Both the position numbers and the translations under genes were made by a program. From contig BPGT01000002.1 in NCBI GenBank assembly GCA_026003175.1, positions 1,116,001 to 1,180,000 on the forward strand: a stretch of DNA of 64,000 bases. Direction: 5' to 3'. Below the pieces are notes generated by a model that was not told the DNA's origin, did no database searches, and saw nothing but the letters and a program-made list of their open reading frames with translations. This document shows positions 1,076 through 11,397 of this stretch, piece by piece (positions within the stretch are counted from its first letter, which is position 1; every line of letters starts with the position of its first letter). This DNA is from Armatimonadota bacterium (lineage in GTDB: Bacteria; Armatimonadota; HRBIN16).

Positions 1076-1739
1076 GTGAGCACAGATGCAGCCTGTCTGG
1101 TAGGCGCATACCCATTTGTTGACCCGCAGGGCAACGCGGTGCATGTGCTGGACGATGACGGTCGCACAGTGCTGGCGAACCTTGCGTATGATGCGTGGGG
1201 TCAGTTGATGTCCGGCAGCAACTCTACGCCCTACGGTTACAAAGCGCAATGGGGCTACACCACCGACGTGGAAACTGGTATACTGTTACTGACGCACCGT
1301 TACCTTGACCCCGCGACGGGGAGGTTTTTGACGAGAGACCCGATAGGAATTGAGGGTGGCATCAATCTGTATGCGTACGTGGGGAATGGGGTAGTCGATT
1401 ACTATGATCCAGAAGGCGAACTGCCCCGTCGAGGGGGGACCTTGGCACCCTCCGGAAAAGGTAAAGGTAGCTTGCAGACCTAGCGATGATTGCCGCCTAA
1501 TACGAGGTAAGATCTGGAATCTGCTCAGAATGCTACGTTCTCACAAAGGGTGGGACGAGCACGTCCCATCGCCACGAGGCGGCGGCAAGCACAGTAAAGA
1601 GATAGAGGATTTGGAAAAAGCCCTATTGAGATGCTTGAGCCTTTGGGCAAAGAAATGTCGGCCTCCCAAGAAGGCGGAGACTCGGGCAAGTTGCCATCCT
1701 GACATGCCTATTGATTGGCAGAAGTACTATCCAGACTGA
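1076..1739 (+). pseudogene. Orphan Rhs core fragment 1 with C-terminal tip, frameshifted
   Basis: This is the longest core fragment: it begins upstream of VDPQGNAVHVLDDDGRTVL and covers AYDAWGQL, YGYKAQWGYT, LDPATGRFLTRDPIG and LYAYVGNGVV, ending at the DPEG junction. The frame opened at GTG 1076 stops at 1483. Moving to the next frame at the run of six G at 1433-1438 gives a continuous tip of about 100 residues to 1739 (GGPWHPPEKVKVACRPSDD..., later KHSKEIEDLEKALLRC). That tip has six Cys and a conserved-looking KH..EIEDLEKAL segment, but I do not recognise its family. There is no plausible ribosome site, so it is probably silent donor sequence. One G fewer would restore the frame. Confidence 0.75.
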
Positions 1740-1775
1740 CCATTAAACGCCAACTGCGATATTGAGGCAACTACA

Positions 1776-2369
1776 ATGCACCACAATAATCTGCTTAAGA
1801 AAATTCTAGAGGAGTCTCGGGGAAGTAGCACGCTTCCGCGCCAGATGGTCCTTTCCTGGATGCGCAGCCAAGACATCGAGGTCATGGCACTTGTAGAGCA
1901 ATTGCTTGGGGATAGGCGGTTTACAGACCGAATACATCCTCCTCTGCAGTTCGAGGAGTACCATGCGTTCTTGGTGCGCTACATCGAGCAATGCATCTGG
2001 AGAGATGTGCGCAACCACGAGTACGTACTGGAGAGATGGGAGGCAGGCTACCGTTTAACGACCTACTTCTGGTATCTTCTAGATAACCCTTCTCTCCCCC
2101 ATTATGCAATAGAGGACCTGAAGCGGTTGCTGGTTCGTCTGCTTGAGAGACATGAACTGAGGGATTTCGTCGTCAACTCGGTGCTCGAACACGTACTGGA
2201 ACATCCGCAGGCAGCAAAGCACTTCGTGGATTGGCATAGGCATCCCCAGCTGCGCGAGGCATACGAGCAAGCAATGACATGGGCTACCACTATCCCAAAA
2301 GAGGATAGCATGTTGTACATTCACAAGCGGTTTGTCGAGATGGTAGGAAAGGATGAGGAGCAGGAATAG
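1776..2369 (+). CDS. Putative immunity protein for Rhs tip 1
   Basis: The 197-residue product is acidic and almost wholly helical, without a signal peptide or membrane segment. A GAGG site lies eight bases before ATG 1776. The gene starts 36 bases after the end of tip 1 and runs directly into the next core fragment, which begins within a few bases of its stop. I do not recognise the family. The position right after a polymorphic-toxin tip is the standard place for a cognate immunity gene, and a soluble helical protein would suit a toxin acting in the cytoplasm. The assignment rests on position. Confidence 0.6.
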   Translation: MHHNNLLKKILEESRGSSTLPRQMVLSWMRSQDIEVMALVEQLLGDRRFTDRIHPPLQFEEYHAFLVRYIEQCIWRDVRNHEYVLERWEAGYRLTTYFWYLLDNPSLPHYAIEDLKRLLVRLLERHELRDFVVNSVLEHVLEHPQAAKHFVDWHRHPQLREAYEQAMTWATTIPKEDSMLYIHKRFVEMVGKDEEQE

Positions 2370-2956
2370 AGGCTACTACACGGACATGGAAACGGGTATA
2401 CTCTTACTGACGCACCGTTACCTTGACCCCGCGACGGGGAGGTTTCTGACCAGAGACCCGATTGGGTTGGAGGGAGGCGTGAACCTGTATGCTTATGTGG
2501 GCAATGGGGTGGTGGTGCTCAGCGATAGCAAGGGTATGCGTGGGGCGCCGGAAGCCCCTTGCCCCAGAAAGATGCCCCATATCAGCTGTAATACCCTTGG
2601 AGGTGTGATAGGGCTACCTAAAACTGACCCTGCTTATAGGTGTGCTCAGGAAGTTTGTCGTTGGTGGGCGAGGGAGTACAATGAGATTGACAAGATAGTG
2701 AGTAAGCTGTGCAACACAGTGATAGATTGTGCTGAAACCAACAGGATACTTCCTCCAATACCGCATGAGTCTTCCTGTTGGCGTGAAGGGGGGTACCGAG
2801 AGGCCACACTGGTTGGACGACTGGATACCCAGTCTTTGCTGTGTCGAATGCCAGAAGCGGGTCTGCTTTTGGTTTGAGGAACCGGCGAAGCAGCTTCTTA
2901 ACAGCGTAACGAACGCTCGGCTTCGTCGATGTTGGCGGCAGTACCACGGGTGGTAA
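2353..2956 (+). pseudogene. Orphan Rhs core fragment 2 with C-terminal tip, frameshifted
   Basis: The core starts at about 2370 with GYYTDMETGILLLTHRY and runs through LDPATGRFLTRDPIG to NLYAYVGNGVV. The SDSKGM segment stands where DPxG normally marks the tip boundary. The starting frame stops at 2877, but the +1 frame continues to 2956 and reads well (HWLDDWIPSL, CCVECQKRVCFWFEEP). The natural switch point is the run of six G at 2788-2793, and one G fewer restores a continuous tip of about 150 residues. In that reading the stop at 2954-2956 is one base before the next gene, as expected for a coupled toxin-immunity pair. The tip is Cys-rich; its family is not recognised. Confidence 0.73.
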
Positions 2957-2957
2957 A

Positions 2958-3509
2958 ATGAGCATAGCGCAGTACTTCAGACGAAGGTTTATATTCTGGG
3001 TCGTTGTGCTGGGGCTGATATCCCTAGCGTACTGGCTAGCCATTTATCTCACTCGTCCTATAGGGTATCAGAAGGGTGCGTTTCGTGAATACGAGACCAG
3101 CTCCGGGGTCTGTATACAGATGCCGAACTTCAGCATCGTGTATGAACTGGATTGTTTCCGTAGCGTTTGGCCGAAGCATATTGCCTCTCCGGGGTGGGCA
3201 GCAGTGCAAGAGGTGCGGCTGCGAGATCAAGGTTGCACGGTGGTCGTCCGGTCTTTCACGTATGAACGCGGTTCTGCTGAGCGGGAGATGAAGCGTTGGG
3301 TGTCGGATTTGACAGAGGATAGGGCGCTACTGCAGGAACGCGCAACCGTTTCCGGTCATCCTGCGCTGAAGCTCTCGGCACCTGGTACGCTGTACCTGTT
3401 CGTCGTTTGGGATGACACAAAATTGCTAGAAATGCAGGCGGATGGCTGCCGAGACGAGGAACACCAACGATGCTTGCGCAAACTCATGGACTCGTTAGAG
3501 CTGCGATAG
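2958..3509 (+). CDS. Membrane-anchored putative immunity protein for tip 2
   Basis: The 183-residue product has one N-terminal membrane segment (residues about 11-31, FIFWVVVLGLISLAYWLAIY) and then a soluble domain with several Cys and a mixed alpha/beta look. It starts one base after the restored stop of tip 2, so the two are probably translated together. No family is recognised. A single-pass protein with its globular part outside the cytoplasm would suit a toxin acting in the periplasm or at the membrane, but the topology is predicted only by eye. Confidence 0.6.
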   Translation: MSIAQYFRRRFIFWVVVLGLISLAYWLAIYLTRPIGYQKGAFREYETSSGVCIQMPNFSIVYELDCFRSVWPKHIASPGWAAVQEVRLRDQGCTVVVRSFTYERGSAEREMKRWVSDLTEDRALLQERATVSGHPALKLSAPGTLYLFVVWDDTKLLEMQADGCRDEEHQRCLRKLMDSLELR

Positions 3510-3528
3510 GCACAGGCAGGGGAGGTGA

Positions 3529-3666
3529 ATGCATCCTGTTCAGCAGAATTGCCAAGATTTCGCCAATTGCCTGCTCAAGAAATGCGGTTTGCCCCACAGG
3601 AAGTATACGCTTCATGGAAGATGGGGGGATTATGGCTCTAACCAGTTCTGGGTACAGACACGATGA
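3529..3666 (+). pseudogene. Remnant of a Rhs tip with an NCQDFA motif
   Basis: A short frame of 45 codons begins after an excellent GGGAGGTGA ribosome-like stretch. It reads MHPVQQNCQDFANCLLKKCG and ends in GSNQFWVQTR. The N-C-Q-D-F segment resembles the catalytic Cys region of permuted papain-like (NlpC/LRAT-type) domains found in some polymorphic toxins, where a His lies upstream. No such upstream half exists here, so this looks like the 3' scrap of a lost tip. It overlaps the start of the next membrane gene in another frame. The similarity is judged by motif only. Confidence 0.4.
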
Positions 3667-4153
3667 GAGTTATCCAACCTCCTTACTAAAGGTGGACGCA
3701 GTTCTGGTAACAGCGGGAGTCACAGCAGTTGTTACAGGTCTGACTCGTTTGGTGCAGCTGGCATTCTCCAACGAGGAGATATCCGTCTATCTGTGGGCCG
3801 ATCCGAGGCACCCATTGCAGTGGTGGATTTGGTATATCGCGCTGAGCATGAGCGTGATCGTGTGGGCTCCATACGGTTTGGTAGTAGGTTTAGCCGACCT
3901 ACTTGTTTGGGCACGCATCACAGGAGGCTGGAGGTCGTGGTTCGCTGAGGCTCTGGTCTGCATCTTTTGTAGTGCGTTGTTCGGTTTCAACTGGTGGGGT
4001 TGGATGCGGGAAGGCGAAAGCTTAACCTTCGTTTGGCAGCGCGTTCCGGCTTTGCTGATTGGGGCAGCGGCGGGTGTCATGGGTCGGCGGATGTTTATGC
4101 GAAGGCGTTTGGGCAGAGCCCGAGTGTCCTCCCGTTCGCTTCCGCCCTCATAG
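3614..4153 (+). CDS. Polytopic membrane protein, putative immunity
   Basis: From ATG 3614 (AGGAAG about ten bases upstream) the product has 179 residues; ATG 3632 is an alternative start. It has about four membrane segments: VLVTAGVTAVVTGLTRLVQL, then one after a DPRHPLQ loop, one around ALVCIFCSALFGFNWW, and ALLIGAAAGVMG. The C-terminus is Arg-rich. A longer open frame reaches back to 3470 but has no ribosome site there. The gene follows the NCQDFA remnant, so it may be immunity to that lost tip. Family not recognised. Confidence 0.55.
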   Translation: MEDGGIMALTSSGYRHDESYPTSLLKVDAVLVTAGVTAVVTGLTRLVQLAFSNEEISVYLWADPRHPLQWWIWYIALSMSVIVWAPYGLVVGLADLLVWARITGGWRSWFAEALVCIFCSALFGFNWWGWMREGESLTFVWQRVPALLIGAAAGVMGRRMFMRRRLGRARVSSRSLPPS

Positions 4154-4208
4154 CCTCTACGGATTAGGCGGGAACGGCGTGGTCAGCGGGTTTGTTGCGC
4201 TGCTTCTT
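4152..4208 (+). other. Possible worn Rhs core relic
   Basis: Directly after the preceding stop, one frame reads LYGLGGNGVVSGFVALLLA before a TGA. This echoes NLYAYVGNGVV, the last conserved block of the core fragments, and sits where a core fragment would be expected. The match is short and could be chance. Confidence 0.3.
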
Positions 4209-4210
4209 GC

Positions 4211-4240
4211 TTGACACTTCCCACATAGGAAAGGTATGCT
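4211..4240 (+). promoter_or_regulatory. Promoter of the AbrB-like/Doc toxin-antitoxin module
   Basis: TTGACA at 4211-4216 and TATGCT at 4235-4240 are separated by 18 bases. The predicted start is about 30 bases before the antitoxin ATG. This gives the module its own promoter inside the Rhs island. Confidence 0.55.
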
Positions 4241-4277
4241 ACCCATGTGAGCCTACGGGTGAGGTGCGCATGAAGCG

Positions 4278-4493
4278 ATGAGAACACTGACCATACAGCG
4301 CATAGGCAATCAGGCTGGCATCCTGCTGCCAGAGGACCTGTTAGCCCATTTAGGGGATGAGCAAGTGATTGCGATAGAAACCCCTTACGGGTTGGAGTTG
4401 CTCCCCTATGACCCTGATCTTGCCAGACAGTTGCAAGAGGCGGAGGCGGTGATGGCTGAAGATGTTGAGGTACTTCGCCGGCTGTCGGGCTGA
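4278..4493 (+). CDS. AbrB/MazE-type antitoxin
   Basis: The 71-residue protein begins with a SpoVT/AbrB-like swapped-hairpin DNA-binding domain (MRTLTIQRIGNQAGILLPED, then a HLGDEQ turn). Its acidic helical tail (QLQEAEAVMAEDVEVLRRL) is typical of the toxin-neutralising end. Its TGA overlaps the ATG of the Doc gene (TGATG at 4491-4495), so the pair is translationally coupled. It should bind the Doc toxin and repress the module promoter just upstream. Doc is most often paired with Phd; an AbrB-type partner is a known but less common exchange. Confidence 0.85.
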   Translation: MRTLTIQRIGNQAGILLPEDLLAHLGDEQVIAIETPYGLELLPYDPDLARQLQEAEAVMAEDVEVLRRLSG

Positions 4494-4891
4494 TGGGACC
4501 GGTCTGGTTGCGTAAGGAGTTGGTTCTGATCGTGCATCGCAGGCAAGTTCTGCAGCATGGAGGCACATTGGGCATCCGCGATGAGGGCTTGCTAGAATCT
4601 GCCTTAGCACGCCCTCGTCAGATATTTGCTTACGAGCCAGGAGCGAATATCGCCCGTTTGGCAGCAGCATATGCATGGGGCATAGTGCACAACCATCCCT
4701 TCGTGGACGGCAACAAACGCACAGCTTTGGTGGCATGCAGGGTGTTTCTACGGTTGAATGGTTATGACCTTGCGGCGCCTGCCGAAGAGAAGTATGCAAT
4801 GTTTATGGGTATCGCGTCGGGTACGGTTTCGGAGGAGGAGTTGCTTCGGTGGCTTGAGGAGCGTATAGTGCCTGCTTCGTTAGGCTATTGA
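4493..4891 (+). CDS. doc: Death-on-curing (Doc/Fic) family toxin
   Basis: The 132-residue product is full length for Doc. The Fic motif HPFVDGNKRTA lies near residues 67-77, with the catalytic His preceding F-x-D-G-N-K-R. N-terminal IRDEGLLESALARP is also typical of Doc. Family members phosphorylate EF-Tu and so stop translation until the antitoxin neutralises them. The frame is intact, with all motif residues present. The next Rhs core fragment begins about 15 bases after its stop. Confidence 0.92.
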   Translation: MGPVWLRKELVLIVHRRQVLQHGGTLGIRDEGLLESALARPRQIFAYEPGANIARLAAAYAWGIVHNHPFVDGNKRTALVACRVFLRLNGYDLAAPAEEKYAMFMGIASGTVSEEELLRWLEERIVPASLGY

Positions 4892-4904
4892 CGCCCCTTC
4901 ATCG

Positions 4905-5456
4905 TTGTTACTAGACCCTGCGACGGGTAGGTTCCTGACCAGAGACCCGATAGGTTCTGAGGGTGAGGTCAATTTGTATGCGTATGTGGGCAATGGGGTG
5001 GTGATTAACCAAGACTCTAGTGGGTACTGGGGCATACCAGCATGTATCGGGGGTGGTTTCGTCTATTGGGCGCACGACTGTTTGGAGACAGCAAAGCGAG
5101 TTGGGGACGAGTGCAAGAATTGGCCCCACTCCCATAGCGGCACGCCGAAGGGTGGGGATAAATTAGTGCATTGTGTTGCCGCTTGTCTGATCGGATTACG
5201 AGCGAAAGCTGGGATAGCTTGTGCTTGGTTGGCGGCACGCTCAACGGAGCGAGAGGGAGGTAATCCATTTGGGCGCCTTAAACCACCAGGCGACCCGCTC
5301 GATGAGAAGGCTGCACTGGATGGAGTAGACTGTGCTACTACGCTCAAACGTGGCATCGTTATTGAAGGCAAGCGTATACGTCATGTAGGGACAGGAAACG
5401 ATTGGTTGGATTGTCAGAAATGTTGTCATGACAAGGGGTATCGTCGATGGAAGTGA
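4905..5456 (+). CDS. Orphan Rhs core fragment 3 with C-terminal tip
   Basis: This is the shortest tip-bearing core fragment: it begins at LLDPATGRFLTRDPIG and lacks the YGYKAQWG and LLLTHRY blocks. It continues through NLYAYVGNGVV to QDSSGY, then a tip of about 140 residues. The tip carries GGDKLVHCVAACLIG, later GVDCATTLKRG and DCQKCCHDKG. The K-x-x-H-C-x3-C pattern followed by a charged helix and a D...G segment recurs in uncharacterised polymorphic-toxin tips; I do not know its activity. The frame could begin at TTG 4905, but there is no ribosome site, so it is likely silent until recombined. Its end overlaps the next gene by ten bases. Confidence 0.75.
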   Translation: MLLDPATGRFLTRDPIGSEGEVNLYAYVGNGVVINQDSSGYWGIPACIGGGFVYWAHDCLETAKRVGDECKNWPHSHSGTPKGGDKLVHCVAACLIGLRAKAGIACAWLAARSTEREGGNPFGRLKPPGDPLDEKAALDGVDCATTLKRGIVIEGKRIRHVGTGNDWLDCQKCCHDKGYRRWK

Positions 5457-6082
5457 AGGAAAGAAAGGTCCTATACCTGTTTGTTCTCACTATGCTCTGT
5501 TTGCTCATGTACTTTATCTGGTGGATAGGTACGAACCCTTACCATAGACTGCTGGAAGACAATTTGTTGCGTCATCGCCCTACGTATCAGGCATGGTTGA
5601 CAGCGCGCAGTATCAAAGAGATTTCGGGGGAGAAAGTGGTTTTTGGGGTGGATGGTCAGGCAACAGCCCCCGAATGCACAAGTGGATGCTATGTCGACAG
5701 TATTCAGGTTTATCGTGGCGAAGGCGATGAATGGATAGTTATGAGATGGTTGCATGACAACAATTTACGCAGGGTGCTTGTGGCGTCGCGCTCCTTAGAG
5801 GGGCGGCTCAGGGCTAAGTTGTTTCTGGAGCAGAACAAGGGGCTACTTGGTGCGCAGTTCCCCATTAGCGACCGTGTCGCTCTATATGATGTGGATCACT
5901 GGCTTAGAAGTGGGAAGCTACGTGCAGGCACGTGGTTATCGGGTTCTATCTCCACCCGGAGTGTAGTGTTACAGTCCAGTATCCTGGGAGAGGAAGCAGG
6001 AGGTGTGCCTGTTCCCTTTTGGTGTTACTGGGAGATTGGCGAAGACGGGCAGGTATTGGCACGAGGGCTGTATGGCTCATAG
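5447..6082 (+). CDS. Membrane-anchored putative immunity protein for tip 3
   Basis: The 211-residue product starts with ATG 5447 inside the last codons of tip 3. It has one N-terminal membrane segment (VLYLFVLTMLCLLMYFIWWI, residues 8-27) followed by a globular domain of about 180 residues. The start overlap argues for coupled translation with the tip. Its TAG stop at 6080-6082 is in the same frame as the next Rhs core, so read-through would join the two. Architecture resembles the tip 2 immunity candidate, but I see no clear sequence similarity between them. Family unknown. Confidence 0.62.
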   Translation: MEVKERKVLYLFVLTMLCLLMYFIWWIGTNPYHRLLEDNLLRHRPTYQAWLTARSIKEISGEKVVFGVDGQATAPECTSGCYVDSIQVYRGEGDEWIVMRWLHDNNLRRVLVASRSLEGRLRAKLFLEQNKGLLGAQFPISDRVALYDVDHWLRSGKLRAGTWLSGSISTRSVVLQSSILGEEAGGVPVPFWCYWEIGEDGQVLARGLYGS

Positions 6083-6751
6083 GGGGCTGAATGGAGGCAG
6101 CTTCTCAACCCCACTCCCTACGGCTACAAAGCCCAGTGGGGCTACACCACGGATGTAGAAACAGGTATACTCTTACTGACGCACCGTTACCTTGACCCCG
6201 CGACGGGGAGGTTTCTGACGAGAGACCCGATTGGGTTGGAGGGAGGCGTGAACCTGTATGCTTATGTGGGCAATGGGGTGGTAATGAGCGTGGACCCGAT
6301 TGGCTTTAATGTGGTCGATTGCGACAAATTGGTAAGGTCTCTTGCAGAAAGGGCAAAGAAGGTCGGAGAGCTTAAAGACTATTATGAAAAACATCGATGC
6401 TTAGACAAGGGCCATACAAAGAAAGCAAAACAAGAGTGCGAAACGATGGCAGATGAGATAGCCCGCTTCAGAAAGTATTGCTATAAGCATCCGAACTATG
6501 ACGAATTGCTGGGTAAATGGTTAAAGGCGTACAAGTTCTGCGTAGATTATGGTAGTCCGCGTAGATGGGATGTGCCTGAGTTTATTCATGAGCCAGGGCT
6601 AAAGGACTGTACCATCGAAGCATGTTTGGCACTTGGTATCGTACGTGCGGGGGTGATTTGCTATAGGCTGGGGCAGCAAGCGGTGAAGTGCGTTCCTGAT
6701 CTGCTTCGGGGTCTACGACCTTCGCCTGATCTGATACCTTACATGAAGTAG
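6083..6751 (+). CDS. Orphan Rhs core fragment 4 with C-terminal tip
   Basis: The frame opens right after the preceding stop and reads LLNPTPYGYKAQWGYTTDVE, LLLTHRYLDPATGRFLTRDP and NLYAYVGNGVV. VDPIGF marks the tip boundary. The tip of about 155 residues is rich in Lys, Glu and Cys, with predicted helices (SLAERAKKVGELKDYYEKHR) and a GH pair, and ends at PDLIPYMK. The family is not recognised. No start codon with a ribosome site exists in the core, although internal TTG codons could serve. It is probably a silent cassette. Confidence 0.72.
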   Translation, partial: GAEWRQLLNPTPYGYKAQWGYTTDVETGILLLTHRYLDPATGRFLTRDPIGLEGGVNLYAYVGNGVVMSVDPIGFNVVDCDKLVRSLAERAKKVGELKDYYEKHRCLDKGHTKKAKQECETMADEIARFRKYCYKHPNYDELLGKWLKAYKFCVDYGSPRRWDVPEFIHEPGLKDCTIEACLALGIVRAGVICYRLGQQAVKCVPDLLRGLRPSPDLIPYMK

Positions 6752-6765
6752 GAGACAGACTAGGA

Positions 6766-8097
6766 ATGCCACGGCGATTACCCATGATTGACTTACAGCC
6801 TGCGCATTTTGTGGGGAGGCTACTCTACCTGACGAGATGGTTGCTTGCACCCGAAAAAGCAAACGACATCGCCTGCATGGTCTTGCGCGTGCCAGATGAA
6901 GCGGAGGAATCCGCCTTTGAACGCACGGGTGAGCCTCCAGATGCGATACAGCTAGCACGTGCTTCATTTATTGCGGAGGCTTTGTTTCACGATGCAATGA
7001 TTGAGTATACGGACCTACTTGCTTTAGGACAGCCTCACGCCCAGCCTACTAATCACGGGGGCATTGACTGCTGGGGGCACGCGCACCCCATCTATGGCAG
7101 CGATGTAGTTTGGGCTCATTTTTGCTGGTTGTTATCCATGTTGCTTGCTCGGTGCCAAGATGGTAAACCCAAGCATGTAAGCCTTGACCCCGTATTGGCA
7201 GAATCCTTCGAAAGGCGATTGGATGAGTACCTTGGCGATACGTATGCATGGTGGTATGCAAAGGCTCCAACCATTCAGAATACAGAGACCATTGTAAACA
7301 TGCCGCCTTCGCTCATGCGTCTCAAGGATAGTTTGGAGAAGCTCTTTACTACTCTTGATAGATGGAACACAAGCCCTTACCACAACCTTTATCTACTTGA
7401 GGAGTTCTACCATGTAGCGTATAGCTATCACGAGGTATACAGTGCTGTAGCGGATGCGCTAACTCATAAGTGGCAGAGGCAACTCAGCGGTACCACGGTA
7501 TCGTTCCCCAGAATGGTTGGACACTTCGCAGACAATGACGCTCCCAAAGTCATGGTGCGATTATCTTATGCGTTTGCTTCTGCCGAAGCATGTCGTATGT
7601 CAGGTTTGGACCAGATAAACTCGATCCGTCTTGCAGAACGTCTATCAAGAACCTACAAATTGACACAATTGCTCTTTTCCTTGATGGGGGTGGAGCAAAC
7701 TCACGTAGCTACACTTGAAAGCGAAACACAGTTCATGGTGAGGCTTGTCATACAGTTGCCTTCCTTTTGGGAGTGGTATACTGAGAGTGTTCTGCTCCCT
7801 CTTGACACGACGGTGATCCCTATCGATCAGTCGCATGTGAATGCTATAGATGGGGAGATATCTACACTCTTGGCCAAGAATCCTCTGTGGACACTGGGCG
7901 ATGAGGCGATGACAACTCTTCCTATAGAAACAAAGATGCTTCACCCCGCTACAGACGTCGCACGCTGGCTACAACAATTCGCCACTTCTCCTCTCCATCC
8001 CTTAGCCTTACTGCAAAGTATCCACAAACTGGAAGGACATATCTGGACAATATTCGATAGTTTGCTACTTAAGGCGATTGCGCAATGCAAAAGGTAG
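6766..8097 (+). CDS. Unrecognised 443-residue protein, cargo after tip 4
   Basis: The gene starts 14 bases after tip 4 (GGAG about 12 bases before ATG 6766; ATG 6784 is an alternative). The product is soluble-looking and largely helical, with a hydrophobic core and no signal peptide. Distinct stretches are GGIDCWGHAHPIYGSD near residue 98 and SPYHNLYLLEEFYHVAYSYH near residue 207. It is far larger than a usual immunity protein and its codons are more AT-rich than the chromosomal genes to the right. It may be immunity to tip 4 or unrelated cargo. I do not recognise the family. Confidence 0.6.
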   Translation: MPRRLPMIDLQPAHFVGRLLYLTRWLLAPEKANDIACMVLRVPDEAEESAFERTGEPPDAIQLARASFIAEALFHDAMIEYTDLLALGQPHAQPTNHGGIDCWGHAHPIYGSDVVWAHFCWLLSMLLARCQDGKPKHVSLDPVLAESFERRLDEYLGDTYAWWYAKAPTIQNTETIVNMPPSLMRLKDSLEKLFTTLDRWNTSPYHNLYLLEEFYHVAYSYHEVYSAVADALTHKWQRQLSGTTVSFPRMVGHFADNDAPKVMVRLSYAFASAEACRMSGLDQINSIRLAERLSRTYKLTQLLFSLMGVEQTHVATLESETQFMVRLVIQLPSFWEWYTESVLLPLDTTVIPIDQSHVNAIDGEISTLLAKNPLWTLGDEAMTTLPIETKMLHPATDVARWLQQFATSPLHPLALLQSIHKLEGHIWTIFDSLLLKAIAQCKR

Positions 8098-8285
8098 ATG
8101 AACAGTGAGCATGCATGGTGGGTGCAAGCCCGCTAGCTATGCCGGCTGTTACTGACAGACGGATTTTACTCATTCATCGTGAGCCTCGTGGATGTTTGGG
8201 TGCCGCGTCAAGAGATTGCTTGGCGACGCACCGTTGAAGGCGCCAGTGGTAGAAACATCGCCCGAACGGATATAAATGGTACGAG

Positions 8286-8501
8286 GTGAGCAACATGTGG
8301 ACCATACGCGGAGTCTACGATGGCAAAACAATACGTCCCCTGCCTGGAGAGCGCCTTCCCGATGTAGAAGGCGAGGTGCCTGTCCAGATTATCTTTCAGT
8401 TGGAAGACACCCCTGCAGCGAGGTTGCTTCGCATCAGAGGGGCACATCCCCCTCTCCCCTTCCCCGTGCGTGAGTTGGCAGACTATGAACGCACCCATTA
8501 A
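8286..8501 (+). CDS. VapB-like antitoxin of a broken VapBC pair
   Basis: The 71-residue protein starts MSNMWTIRGVYDGKTIRPLP, a beta-hairpin start like that of small antitoxins of the AF2212/DUF104 sort, and has a helical, charged end (VRELADYERTH). A GAGGTGA ribosome site precedes ATG 8286. Its last codons overlap the ATG of a PIN-domain frame at 8485, the usual VapBC arrangement. With the toxin cut off, the antitoxin is now an orphan. Identification relies on the overlapping PIN start as much as on its own sequence. Confidence 0.65.
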   Translation: MSNMWTIRGVYDGKTIRPLPGERLPDVEGEVPVQIIFQLEDTPAARLLRIRGAHPPLPFPVRELADYERTH

Positions 8502-8565
8502 AGCGGCTGTTATTGACGCTTCGGTCGCCCTCAAACGGACGTGGAAACTGGTATACTGTTACTGA
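8485..8565 (+). pseudogene. VapC (PIN toxin) 5' fragment cut by Rhs core 5
   Basis: The frame MNAPIKAAVIDASVALK is the start of a PIN domain, where the first catalytic Asp lies in V-I-D-A-S. At about 8537 the sequence switches abruptly to the Rhs core (GACGTGGAAACTGG...), and the frame ends in the wrong register at 8565. About 110-120 residues of a normal VapC are missing. The join shows that a core fragment replaced the rest of the toxin gene by recombination or insertion. Confidence 0.75.
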
Positions 8566-9107
8566 CACACCGTTACCTTGACCCCGCGACGGGGAGGTTT
8601 CTGACGAGGGACCCGATTGGGTTGGAGGGAGGCGTGAACCTGTATGCTTATGTGGGCAATGGGGTGGTGGTGCTTAAAGACCCTACTGGGCTTATACCCC
8701 CTATTGTCGGTCTGTTGGTAAAGCAGTGCTTGGAGGGGGCAGCGGGTTCAGCTTTGGGTAACTTGGCTGAGTGGCTCACGTGCATGCTCGGTGCGCTGAT
8801 TCGTGGCTACGGTATTAAAGAAGCAGCGTCAGCATGTGGAGGACTTCCGGTGAACGGGTGTGAGATCCTGGCTGGCTGCATTGGCGGAATACTTGGGGGA
8901 CCTTTCGCAAAGAGATTACCGCCATGGCTGCAGAAGAAGCTGCAAGATCTATCAGAGGAGATTGTGGGTTGGCTTACGTCTGGTTTCTGCCGGGGTATTA
9001 CACTCCCTCCACCTCCTAAGCGTCCACGTCCGAAGCCGGTGCCTATGCCTCGTCCTCCTGATGACCCAAAGCAATGTGGTTACCAACCACCTCCGCGTTA
9101 TCCATAA
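8538..9107 (+). CDS. Orphan Rhs core fragment 5 with hydrophobic, Pro-tailed tip
   Basis: The core begins at DVETGILLLTHRY, right at the VapC junction, and ends at NLYAYVGNGVV with KDPTGL as boundary. The tip (about 140 residues) is glycine-rich and hydrophobic, with regularly placed Cys: IVGLLVKQCLEGAAG, SACGG, NGCEILAGCIGGILGGP. It finishes in a Pro/Arg tail (PPPPKRPRPKPVPMPRPP). That composition suggests a membrane-active domain, and the following gene encodes a small membrane protein. The activity is a guess. Tip 6 has the same layout. Confidence 0.72.
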   Translation, partial: DVETGILLLTHRYLDPATGRFLTRDPIGLEGGVNLYAYVGNGVVVLKDPTGLIPPIVGLLVKQCLEGAAGSALGNLAEWLTCMLGALIRGYGIKEAASACGGLPVNGCEILAGCIGGILGGPFAKRLPPWLQKKLQDLSEEIVGWLTSGFCRGITLPPPPKRPRPKPVPMPRPPDDPKQCGYQPPPRYP

Positions 9108-9137
9108 AAACGGTGCAGTCGAGGAAGGAGGTATAGC

Positions 9138-9404
9138 ATGAGGGAGTTCCTGTTGTATACGACTATAGGTTTAGCCATGATACTGAGCCAAACCTGGTGG
9201 TACCCCAAGCATATAGGATGGGCACGCACCTTGGCGATTTGGCTAGTAGGGGCACTTGTAGTGGCAGCTTTCGCTTCCATAACACGCTTGTTATCATTTC
9301 ATCACGAGCGGTATAGAGATTGGCTTGCGATTTTAGTGGTTGCCATATTAGCAGCAGCAGTTATTGGCTTAACAAGAGGATTGTGGGTGGTTCCAAAGCC
9401 GTAG
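9138..9404 (+). CDS. Small membrane protein, putative immunity to tip 5
   Basis: The 88-residue product has three membrane segments (residues about 4-20, 30-47 and 62-80) and little else. A full GGAGG site lies six bases before ATG 9138, and the gene begins 30 bases after the tip 5 stop. Small integral membrane immunity proteins commonly protect against pore-forming toxins, which fits the hydrophobic character of tip 5. Family not recognised. Confidence 0.65.
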   Translation: MREFLLYTTIGLAMILSQTWWYPKHIGWARTLAIWLVGALVVAAFASITRLLSFHHERYRDWLAILVVAILAAAVIGLTRGLWVVPKP

Positions 9405-9423
9405 AGCAGAGCCTTGTTGGACC

Positions 9424-10017
9424 GACCCCACGCCTTACGGCTACAAAGCCCAGTGGGGCTACACCACGGATGTAGAAACAGGTATACTCTTACTGACGCA
9501 CCGTTACCTTGACCCCGCGACGGGGAGGTTTCTGACGAGAGACCCGATTGGGTTGGAGGGAGGCGTGAACCTGTATGCTTATGTGGGCAATGGGGTGGTG
9601 AAAGAGAAAGACCCAATAGGTCTGCGAGCACTGATATTGCCCTTAATACAATTGCCTCGTGACATTCGGGCGCAAATCGCTGCATGTTTGGCTGGAGCGG
9701 CGTGGGGGTGGATATCGGAGTGTTTTTATTATAGAGAATGGAGATCTCCTACCTGGAAGGCGAGCTGTATGGGGTGCTGCACCGCTTTGGGTCTCTGGGA
9801 CCTTTACAAAAAGCGGTATGGTCAGGGCGCAGTAAAAACGCTCTGCGCCTCTATCTGCGGAATGCTGGCAGACCTGTTCTCGGCTGAGGAGCGTCCGTAC
9901 TTTCCTCCCTATCCGCCTGTTCCACCCCCTGGAGTAGGACCCCAGCCGGGAGATCCGAACAGACCTTTGCCGGGCGAGTGTATCCGTTTGCCCAATGGGA
10001 GGGTAGTTTGCGGATGA
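9424..10017 (+). CDS. Orphan Rhs core fragment 6 with hydrophobic, Pro-tailed tip
   Basis: The core starts at PTPYGYKAQWGYTTDVE and runs through LDPATGRFLTRDPIG to NLYAYVGNGVV, with KDPIGL as boundary. The tip of about 135 residues has amphipathic, Cys-bearing helices (IAACLAGAAWGWISECF, SCMGCCTALGLW, LCASICGMLADLF). It ends in a Pro/Gly tail (FPPYPPVPPPGVGPQPGDP) and CIRLPNGRVVCG. The layout matches tip 5 and both precede multi-pass membrane genes. Its TGA overlaps the next ATG (ATGA at 10014-10017). No ribosome site precedes the core. Confidence 0.73.
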   Translation, partial: DPTPYGYKAQWGYTTDVETGILLLTHRYLDPATGRFLTRDPIGLEGGVNLYAYVGNGVVKEKDPIGLRALILPLIQLPRDIRAQIAACLAGAAWGWISECFYYREWRSPTWKASCMGCCTALGLWDLYKKRYGQGAVKTLCASICGMLADLFSAEERPYFPPYPPVPPPGVGPQPGDPNRPLPGECIRLPNGRVVCG

Positions 10018-10430
10018 GCAGAGGAGCCTTCCTGCACACCACTTACGACTTTGTGGTGACATTCTTTTTATGGAGTATAACCCTACTCCTGTGGGGTCTG
10101 CTCTTTCGGCACAAAGCCCAGCGGGAAGAACTTTCCACAAGTGTGGAGGCTGGTGATGACTGGTTGACGGTTCTGAAGATAATGCTTACATTTTCGGTAT
10201 CCGTCATAGCGGTCCCGTACCCTCCCAGTGGATTAGAGTATGTCTTCGCGATATTCACATGGTTTATTGTGTCTGCTCCACTGTGCAACTATCTATTAAA
10301 ACGGTTGACAAACAGGGGTGGACGCATTCATTTGTTTGCCTCTGCTCTTATAGCATCCCTTGCCTGGCTAGCAGCAGCAATTGCTTTCAGATTCGCCTGG
10401 GTATGCTTTCGAACTATCGCGTACGGGTGA
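10014..10430 (+). CDS. Multi-pass membrane protein, putative immunity to tip 6
   Basis: Starting at ATG 10014 (coupled by ATGA to tip 6) the product has 138 residues. It has about four membrane segments, around TFFLWSITLLLWGLLF, ILTF..VSVIAVPY, FAIFTWFIVSAPLCNYLL and ALIASLAWLAAAIAFRF. The same frame is open back to 9978, but those codons lie inside the tip and lack a ribosome site. Family not recognised. Its stop is immediately followed by the last core fragment. Confidence 0.65.
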   Translation: MSRGAFLHTTYDFVVTFFLWSITLLLWGLLFRHKAQREELSTSVEAGDDWLTVLKIMLTFSVSVIAVPYPPSGLEYVFAIFTWFIVSAPLCNYLLKRLTNRGGRIHLFASALIASLAWLAAAIAFRFAWVCFRTIAYG

Positions 10431-10575
10431 ACCTTGCGTATGATGCGTGGGGTCAGCTTATCTCTGGAAGCAACCCCACCCCCTACGGCTACAAAGCGCA
10501 ATGGGGCTACACCACCGACGTGGAAACTGGTATACTGTTACTGACGCACCGTTACCTTGACCCCGCGACGGGGAG
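10430..10575 (+). other. Rhs core fragment 7, without a tip, joined to the zinc operon
   Basis: The sequence encodes NLAYDAWGQLISGSNPTPYG, YKAQWGYTTDVETG and LLLTHRYLDPATGRF, then diverges from all other copies at 10576. Only about 20 bases further on lies the stop codon of the minus-strand zinc permease gene. The fragment therefore lost its LTRDPIG block and tip and marks the right boundary of the island. Confidence 0.85.
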
Positions 10576-10596
10576 ATTTTCGCTTCGGCAGAAGCT

Positions 10597-11397
10597 CTAT
10601 CCCTCTCGTCGGAAAAGCACCGACAGTATAAACACCCCTGCTGCGGTGAGCACAATGGCTGCGCCGGACGCGGTGCCGAACCAGTAAGAAGCATATAGCC
10701 CCAGCACACTGCTGCTGCCCCCGATCACGCAGGCAGCAACCGCCATCCCACGAAAGCTGCGTGTGAGATTACGCGCAGCGGCAGCTGGTAATAACAGCAT
10801 CGCCGTTACCAGCACAATGCCAATCAGCTTGAGCGACAGCGTGACCATCACCGCCAGCAACACCAGGAAAAGCGTATCTACCCGGGCGGCGGAAGTGCCC
10901 ATCGCCATCGCCATCTCGCGGTGCACGGACACCCGCAACAGCGCGTTCCACATCGCCAGTATCGCCAACACGCCCCCTGCGCACATCACCGCCACCAGCC
11001 ACACGTCTTCCCATGCCAGCGCGAGGATGTCGCCAAACAGGAACTGGAAGAGTCCCGGCTGATAGCCCTGCAGGATGCCCAGTAGCAGGATACCTGCCCC
11101 CGCGCACAGAGCTAAGTACACGCCGATAACAGTATCCGCCGGTATCTCCGTGCGGTGCAGGGTGAGGACGATAGCGAGTGTTACCAGCACCGCGAAGGCG
11201 ATGACCGTCGGCATGGCAGGGGTCATCAACAGGGCAGACAGCGCCAGCCCAGTGAACGCCGAGTGAGCTACTGCCTCACTGAAAAAAGAGAGACGCCGTG
11301 TTACCACAAATACGCCGATGAGTGGCAGGCTGAATCCCAACAGCACGGAGGCAATCAACGCACGCTGGAAGAAGGGATACTGCAAAATCTCCATCAT
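10597..11397 (-). CDS. znuB: Zinc ABC transporter permease (ABC-3 family)
   Basis: The protein of 266 residues has about eight to nine membrane segments and the ABC-3 family look (SLPLIGVFVVTRRLSFFSEA near the N-terminus, HSAFTGLALSAL, and the cytoplasmic loop around RTEIPADTVIG). The start is placed at ATG 11397, which overlaps the ATPase stop (ATGATGA-type overlap at 11394-11397). The frame is open a further 39 codons upstream but inside the ATPase gene. It forms the membrane channel for the solute-binding protein encoded at the head of this operon. Its 3' end lies next to the Rhs island boundary but is intact. Confidence 0.92.
   Translation of the reverse strand: MMEILQYPFFQRALIASVLLGFSLPLIGVFVVTRRLSFFSEAVAHSAFTGLALSALLMTPAMPTVIAFAVLVTLAIVLTLHRTEIPADTVIGVYLALCAGAGILLLGILQGYQPGLFQFLFGDILALAWEDVWLVAVMCAGGVLAILAMWNALLRVSVHREMAMAMGTSAARVDTLFLVLLAVMVTLSLKLIGIVLVTAMLLLPAAAARNLTRSFRGMAVAACVIGGSSSVLGLYASYWFGTASGAAIVLTAAGVFILSVLFRREG

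What the first reader, a model, noticed from the sequence alone, without database searches (positions are those of the whole stretch)
8286..8565. VapBC toxin beheaded at an Rhs core junction
An intact antitoxin overlaps a PIN-domain start (VIDASVALK) that turns into the Rhs core at about 8537. This captures a junction made when a tip cassette landed in or recombined with a toxin gene. It shows that the array grows at the expense of neighbouring modules and leaves an antitoxin behind.
Basis: partly seen in the sequence, partly recalled or inferred. Interest (0 to 1): 0.62.

Follow-up and report, generated by a model that had tools for sequence, protein, structure and literature searches.

The report
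Beheaded vapBC remnant in Rhs array
A bacterial toxin–antitoxin pair sitting inside a row of recycled Rhs toxin-tip genes has kept its antitoxin gene but lost almost all of its toxin gene at a joint with Rhs core DNA; the loss is real, old and shared with a sister genome, and is an example of a known kind of decay, not of a new system.

Summary
At 8286–8501 lies a full-length 71-aa VapB-like antitoxin gene, overlapped by 17 nt by a vapC start (8485). After 17 codons (MNAPIKAAVIDASVALK) this start runs into Rhs core DNA at about 8536. Intact relatives exist: Bacterium HR15 has two vapBC pairs, and two further genomes have full PIN-domain VapC of about 150 aa. The joint is no assembly error: a sister species (G006) has it too. 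A third (G001, Bacterium HR16) is cut at another point. The "complete small gene" alternative fails, because the three short frames end differently.

No vapC remainder was found in the window's genome, so simple cassette insertion into vapC is unlikely; the joint shares about 1 nt. Five of the window's six internal core starts spare the upstream gene. Array change between sister genomes runs core-to-core. A second TA module (MazE/Doc) in these arrays lost its toxin twice by internal deletion, without any cassette. All close copies of both TA modules found in this genus lie in Rhs arrays. Ordinary decay of array passengers; modest interest.

The parts
1178..10597 (+). Rhs tip array: seven core fragments (starts 1178, 2371, about 4911, 6092, 8535, 9421, 10430), mostly each followed by a different tip; no full-length Rhs head gene found next to it
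   Evidence: tblastn with core protein, direct repeats, genus-wide core search
4278..4493 (+). MazE-like (doc_partner) antitoxin of a second TA module in the array
   Evidence: TIGR02609 E 1.6e-5, below its cut-off
4493..4891 (+). Doc toxin, intact here; next core starts about 16-19 nt after its stop
   Evidence: TIGR01550 E 1.8e-20; Fic PF02661 E 2.4e-19
6766..8097 (+). 443-aa ORF, putative immunity gene of the preceding tip, no family match
   Evidence: ORF, no Pfam/NCBIfam match; 2.0% divergence from G006
8136..8285 (+). remnant of the 3' end of a membrane-protein gene that stands longer upstream of vapB in G001 and G009
   Evidence: alignment A2, ORFs in L005 and L007
8286..8501 (+). vapB-like antitoxin gene, 71 aa, full length
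   Evidence: 88%, 87%, 68% identical to G001, G006, HR15 homologues
8485..8536 (+). vapC remnant: first 17 codons (MNAPIKAAVIDASVALK), only the first PIN acidic residue kept; frame runs on to a stop at 8565
   Evidence: translation, alignment with intact VapC
8535..8538 (.). non-homologous joint vapC | Rhs core, about 1 nt shared
   Evidence: comparison of window, G006, G001 and intact vapC
8535..8669 (+). Rhs core fragment (core positions 29-73)
   Evidence: TIGR03696 E 2.4e-14
8541..9107 (+). ORF of core remnant plus displaced tip, 188 aa
9138..9404 (+). 88-aa ORF, putative immunity gene; its boundary with the next core is 100% identical in two other arrays

Best explanation
The feature is a dead vapBC toxin-antitoxin module carried as a passenger in an Rhs tip array of an Armatimonadota bacterium. 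Shown: the antitoxin is full length, the toxin is reduced to 17 codons, the joint goes straight into Rhs core DNA, and the joint is present in two species. Inferred: an incoming core-tip-immunity fragment whose tail carried vapBC was anchored by core homology, and its far end was joined without homology inside a resident core, cutting vapC; or a later deletion ran from vapC into the next core. Losing the toxin is tolerated while losing the antitoxin first would be harmful, so antitoxin-only remnants are what survives. The joint has since been inherited like other cassette boundaries while core-to-core recombination exchanged the neighbouring tips.
For: Intact vapBC in HR15 (two pairs), G175 and G176 with about 150-aa PIN VapC; same joint in G006, different shorter joint in G001. 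No vapC remainder in the array or genome. About 1 nt shared at the joint. Window segment between the cores at 2371-2513 and 6148-6282 is replaced in G006 by a single core, as core-to-core exchange would give. Cassette boundaries are inherited intact across arrays (for example the 88-aa and 150-aa ORF-core boundaries). In this genus all 4 vapB, all 5 close MazE and all 3 close Doc copies lie in Rhs arrays. Doc lost twice by internal deletion with MazE kept (G003-C52, G009). The published proposal of homology-facilitated illegitimate recombination for such arrays (PMC5361080) predicts just such a non-homologous end.
Against: No pre-joint allele (intact vapBC inside an Rhs array) was found, so the order of events is inferred. 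Antitoxin activity of the 71-aa protein is untested and no family model matches it. Three or four toxin-side lesions against none on an antitoxin beside an intact toxin is too few to prove selection: toxin genes are about twice as long.
Confidence: 0.72

Rival explanations
1. A tip cassette (or the resident core) inserted directly into an intact vapC that already lay in or beside the array.
For: The joint is exactly vapC to core and core fragments do start at many different points.
Against: No vapC 3' remainder in the array or elsewhere in the genome; 5 of 6 internal core starts in the window spare the upstream gene.
Confidence: 0.12
2. A plain deletion after capture: vapBC was whole and followed by a core, and a deletion removed most of vapC and the 5' part of that core fragment, without any cassette movement. 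(This is one of the two branches of the best explanation.)
For: Internal deletions with 1-3 nt of shared sequence killed Doc in G003-C52 and G009 in the same kind of place; G001's shorter joint can be derived from the window's by a deletion of about 33 nt; solo vapB without vapC also outside arrays in HOT.MAX.079.
Against: No relative with whole vapBC followed by a core was found, so it cannot be told from capture-time cutting.
Confidence: 0.38
3. The orphan VapB is kept by selection, as protection against related VapC (anti-addiction) or as a regulator.
For: Frame intact in three species; dN/dS 0.22-0.41 between beheaded copies, G000 against G001 low in a simulation (P 0.008), the other two pairs not significant.
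Against: vapB diverges 7.5% between G000 and G006 against 2.0% in the neighbouring 443-aa gene, though the higher dS suggests separate histories; G009 has lost most of vapB; no promoter-like site found.
Confidence: 0.2
4. The short frame 8485-8565 is a complete small gene with its own function.
For: It has a start codon and overlaps the end of vapB.
Against: C-termini differ: window ...VALKRTWKLVYCY, G006 ...VALKRM, G001 ...VIDASVTGAPLL; intact homologues are PIN proteins.
Confidence: 0.02

Closest known systems
Rhs loci diversified by C-terminal displacement (Jackson et al. 2009, PMC2935791; Snodgrassella alvi arrays, PMC5727410)
   Same: String of core fragments of varying length, each with another tip and a putative immunity gene; difference between sister genomes fits core-to-core exchange; orphan immunity genes left after toxin loss are reported in S. 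alvi
   Different: Here the array also carries VapBC-like and MazE/Doc modules between immunity gene and next core; no full-length Rhs head gene was found by this particular array
VapBC type II toxin-antitoxin modules (PIN-domain VapC)
   Same: Gene order, 17-nt overlap, PIN start motif VIDASVALK; intact homologues match PF01850
   Different: VapC is reduced to 17 codons; the antitoxin matches no Pfam or NCBIfam model
Orphan antitoxins of degraded TA pairs (Klebsiella survey, PMC7192599)
   Same: Antitoxin gene kept without a toxin
   Different: Here the lesion can be placed to the base and lies at an Rhs core joint
Immunity gene arrays by sequential displacement in Vibrio cholerae (PMC5361080)
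   Same: Proposed mechanism, homology-facilitated illegitimate recombination, gives one homologous and one non-homologous end
   Different: There the leftovers are immunity genes of T6SS effectors; here a TA module

Membership tests
VapBC type II TA module | Full PIN-domain toxin with its acidic active-site residues | tested here: not met
   Only 17 codons remain, with the first Asp (D11); intact homologues continue with the later conserved E and D positions
VapBC type II TA module | Small antitoxin gene upstream, overlapping or abutting the toxin start | tested here: met
   71-aa ORF, 17-nt overlap, as in HR15
VapBC type II TA module | Antitoxin neutralises the toxin | not testable with these tools
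   No family model or PDB chain matches the antitoxin
Rhs array with displaced tips | Repeated core fragments each followed by a different tip | tested here: met
Rhs array with displaced tips | Full-length Rhs gene at the 5' end of the array | tested here: not met
   No strong core match between 1096001 and the first fragment at 1117232 and no Rhs-sized ORF just upstream; some other arrays of the genus have one (open frames of about 1300 aa)
Rhs array with displaced tips | Tip exchange by core-to-core recombination | tested here: met
   G000 against G006: the window's cores at 2371-2513 and 6148-6282, with all between them, correspond to one core in G006
Orphan antitoxin | Antitoxin frame intact with no functional partner gene beside it | tested here: met
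Homology-facilitated illegitimate recombination | One homologous end and one end joined without homology | tested here: inconclusive
   The joint shares about 1 nt; donor and recipient before the event were not found

The most novel reading that the evidence does not exclude
In this genus TA modules (vapBC, MazE/Doc) are dedicated passengers of Rhs cassettes, which keep the cassettes in the genome until the toxin is lost, after which the antitoxin is kept as protection against kin that still carry the whole pair.
Probability: 0.15. Interest if true: 0.55.

Novelty: new member of a known kind. Interest (0 to 1): 0.27.

Why it matters
It gives base-exact examples, with intact outgroup alleles, of TA modules in polymorphic-toxin arrays that have lost the toxin and kept the antitoxin. 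The confinement of two TA modules to Rhs arrays in one genus (all close copies found) makes it testable whether TA modules help to keep such arrays. It does not show a new mechanism.

Tried and rejected
Chance or misassembly: rejected, same joint in G006. Short frame as a gene: rejected. Rest of vapC downstream or elsewhere: not found. First thought that G009 vapB was joined to core: wrong; it is joined to the leader of the MazE gene (noted). Family identity of the antitoxin: no match in Pfam, NCBIfam, PADLOC or PDB. Selection on orphan vapB: signal too weak. Promoter-like site ahead of vapB: none found. Order and class searches added nothing, because among the genomes held they contain only this genus. 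Structure prediction was not used: intact homologues are already placed by PF01850.

Full report
What is there. The window lies in a 4.1-Mb genome (G000, contig C2, 1116001-1180000). Its congeners include Bacterium HR16; more distant relatives of the antitoxin are in Bacterium HR15 and an Armatimonadetes MAG. From about 1178 to 10597 the window carries a string of seven Rhs core fragments, mostly followed by different tips and small ORFs. At 8286-8501 a 71-aa ORF is overlapped by 17 nt by a second frame starting at 8485, which reads MNAPIKAAVIDASVALK and then RTWKLVYCY*. From 8535/8536 on the DNA is Rhs core.

Intact homologues. A genome-collection scan and a search of 291 phylum genomes found the same antitoxin family in eight genomes. 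In Bacterium HR15 (L013, matching G182) there are two tandem pairs, each with a full VapC of 154-156 aa; G175 and G176 have full VapC as well, and G180 is cut by a contig end. HR15 VapC matches PF01850 (E 5.5e-10) and PIN proteins in the PDB. The window's 17 codons align with the start of these proteins, and only the first of the conserved acidic positions remains.

The joint in relatives. G006 has the same joint, CTCAAACGGATGTAGAAACTGGTA, with unrelated sequence about 24 nt into the core (a weak transposase match in one short frame). G001 (HR16) is cut earlier, GACGCTTCGGT|TACTGGCGCACCG, and can be derived from the window type by a deletion of about 33 nt, or can be independent. G009 keeps 19 codons of vapB, joined to the leader of a MazE gene. 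HOT.MAX.079 has a solo vapB with a thiolase gene behind it and no core in the locus held. The three short vapC frames end differently, so this is no conserved small gene.

How the joint arose. Intact vapC reads CTGAAATGGGTC (HR15) or CTCAAGTGGGTT (G180) here; the core reads TACACGGACATGG or CACCGACGTGG; the joint CTCAA|ACGGACGTGG shares about 1 nt, which says only that no long homology was used. A simple insertion into vapC should leave the other part of vapC beyond the insert; no such part is in the array or, as a close homologue, in the genome. Two readings remain: vapBC was the tail of a captured fragment and was cut when its end was joined into a resident core, or a deletion joined vapC to the next core later. 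One literature proposal for such arrays, homology-facilitated illegitimate recombination, has one homologous and one non-homologous end (PMC5361080); the circle model for rhs tips uses homologous recombination only (PMC2935791). I cannot decide between the two readings.

Does the array grow at the neighbours' expense? Mostly not. Five of six internal core starts in the window lie within about 20 nt of the stop of an upstream ORF. Boundaries between upstream ORF and core are inherited as they are: the 88-aa ORF boundary is 100% identical in three arrays, the 150-aa ORF boundary occurs three times, the 197-aa ORF boundary in G000 and G006. Between G000 and G006 the segment bounded by the cores at 2371-2513 and 6148-6282 comes or goes as exchange between cores would do it. 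The tip and 443-aa gene differ by 2.0% between these genomes, vapB by 7.5%, with dS 0.032 (443-aa gene) against 0.148 (vapB), so they have separate histories.

A second TA module tells the same story. MazE/Doc at 4278-4891 is intact in the window and in G006 and nearly so in G003-C63; in G003-C52 and G009 Doc is internally deleted while MazE is kept. In the genus all five close MazE copies, all three close Doc copies and all four vapB copies lie in Rhs arrays, which make up a small part of each genome. Toxin lesions with the antitoxin kept: three or four events; antitoxin lesions beside a working toxin: none. This is what harm by an unguarded toxin would give, but toxin genes are about twice as long, so the count alone proves little. 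Orphan immunity genes left after toxin decay are described in Snodgrassella alvi (PMC5727410), and orphan antitoxins are common in Klebsiella (PMC7192599).

Verdict. It is a well-documented case of toxin loss in a TA passenger of an Rhs array: a new member of a known kind, of modest interest. The more general pattern, two TA modules confined to Rhs arrays in one genus, is the part worth following.

Noticed in passing
window 4278-4891; L064, L069, L070, L057: A MazE/Doc module sits ahead of a core in Rhs arrays of four genomes; Doc is internally deleted in G003-C52 and G009 with the antitoxin kept.
   Followed up: yes
window 9138-9600; L060 around 8211; L063 around 4217: The last 400 bp up to the core behind the 88-aa ORF are 100% identical in three arrays of two species, pointing to recent exchange.
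   Followed up: partly
L063 around 5226 and 9103; window 10430: The same 150-aa ORF and its core boundary occur twice in one G006 array and once at the end of the window's array.
   Followed up: no
L006 (G006:C4, about 151237-153638): About 2.4 kb of unrelated DNA follow the first 24 nt of core behind vapC'; one short frame has a weak DDE transposase match. The next core starts close to where the first breaks off.
   Followed up: partly
L013 3001-4506 (Bacterium HR15): Two tandem vapBC pairs whose antitoxins share their N-terminal half and whose toxins share an almost identical C-terminal stretch, suggesting recombination between the pairs.
   Followed up: no
L014 2839-3063 (HOT.MAX.079): Solo vapB without vapC, no Rhs core in the locus held, followed directly by a thiolase gene.
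   Followed up: partly
window 10430-10650: The last core of the array breaks off in ATGRF and abuts, on the opposite strand, what looks like a metal ABC-transporter permease gene (by eye, not tested).
   Followed up: no
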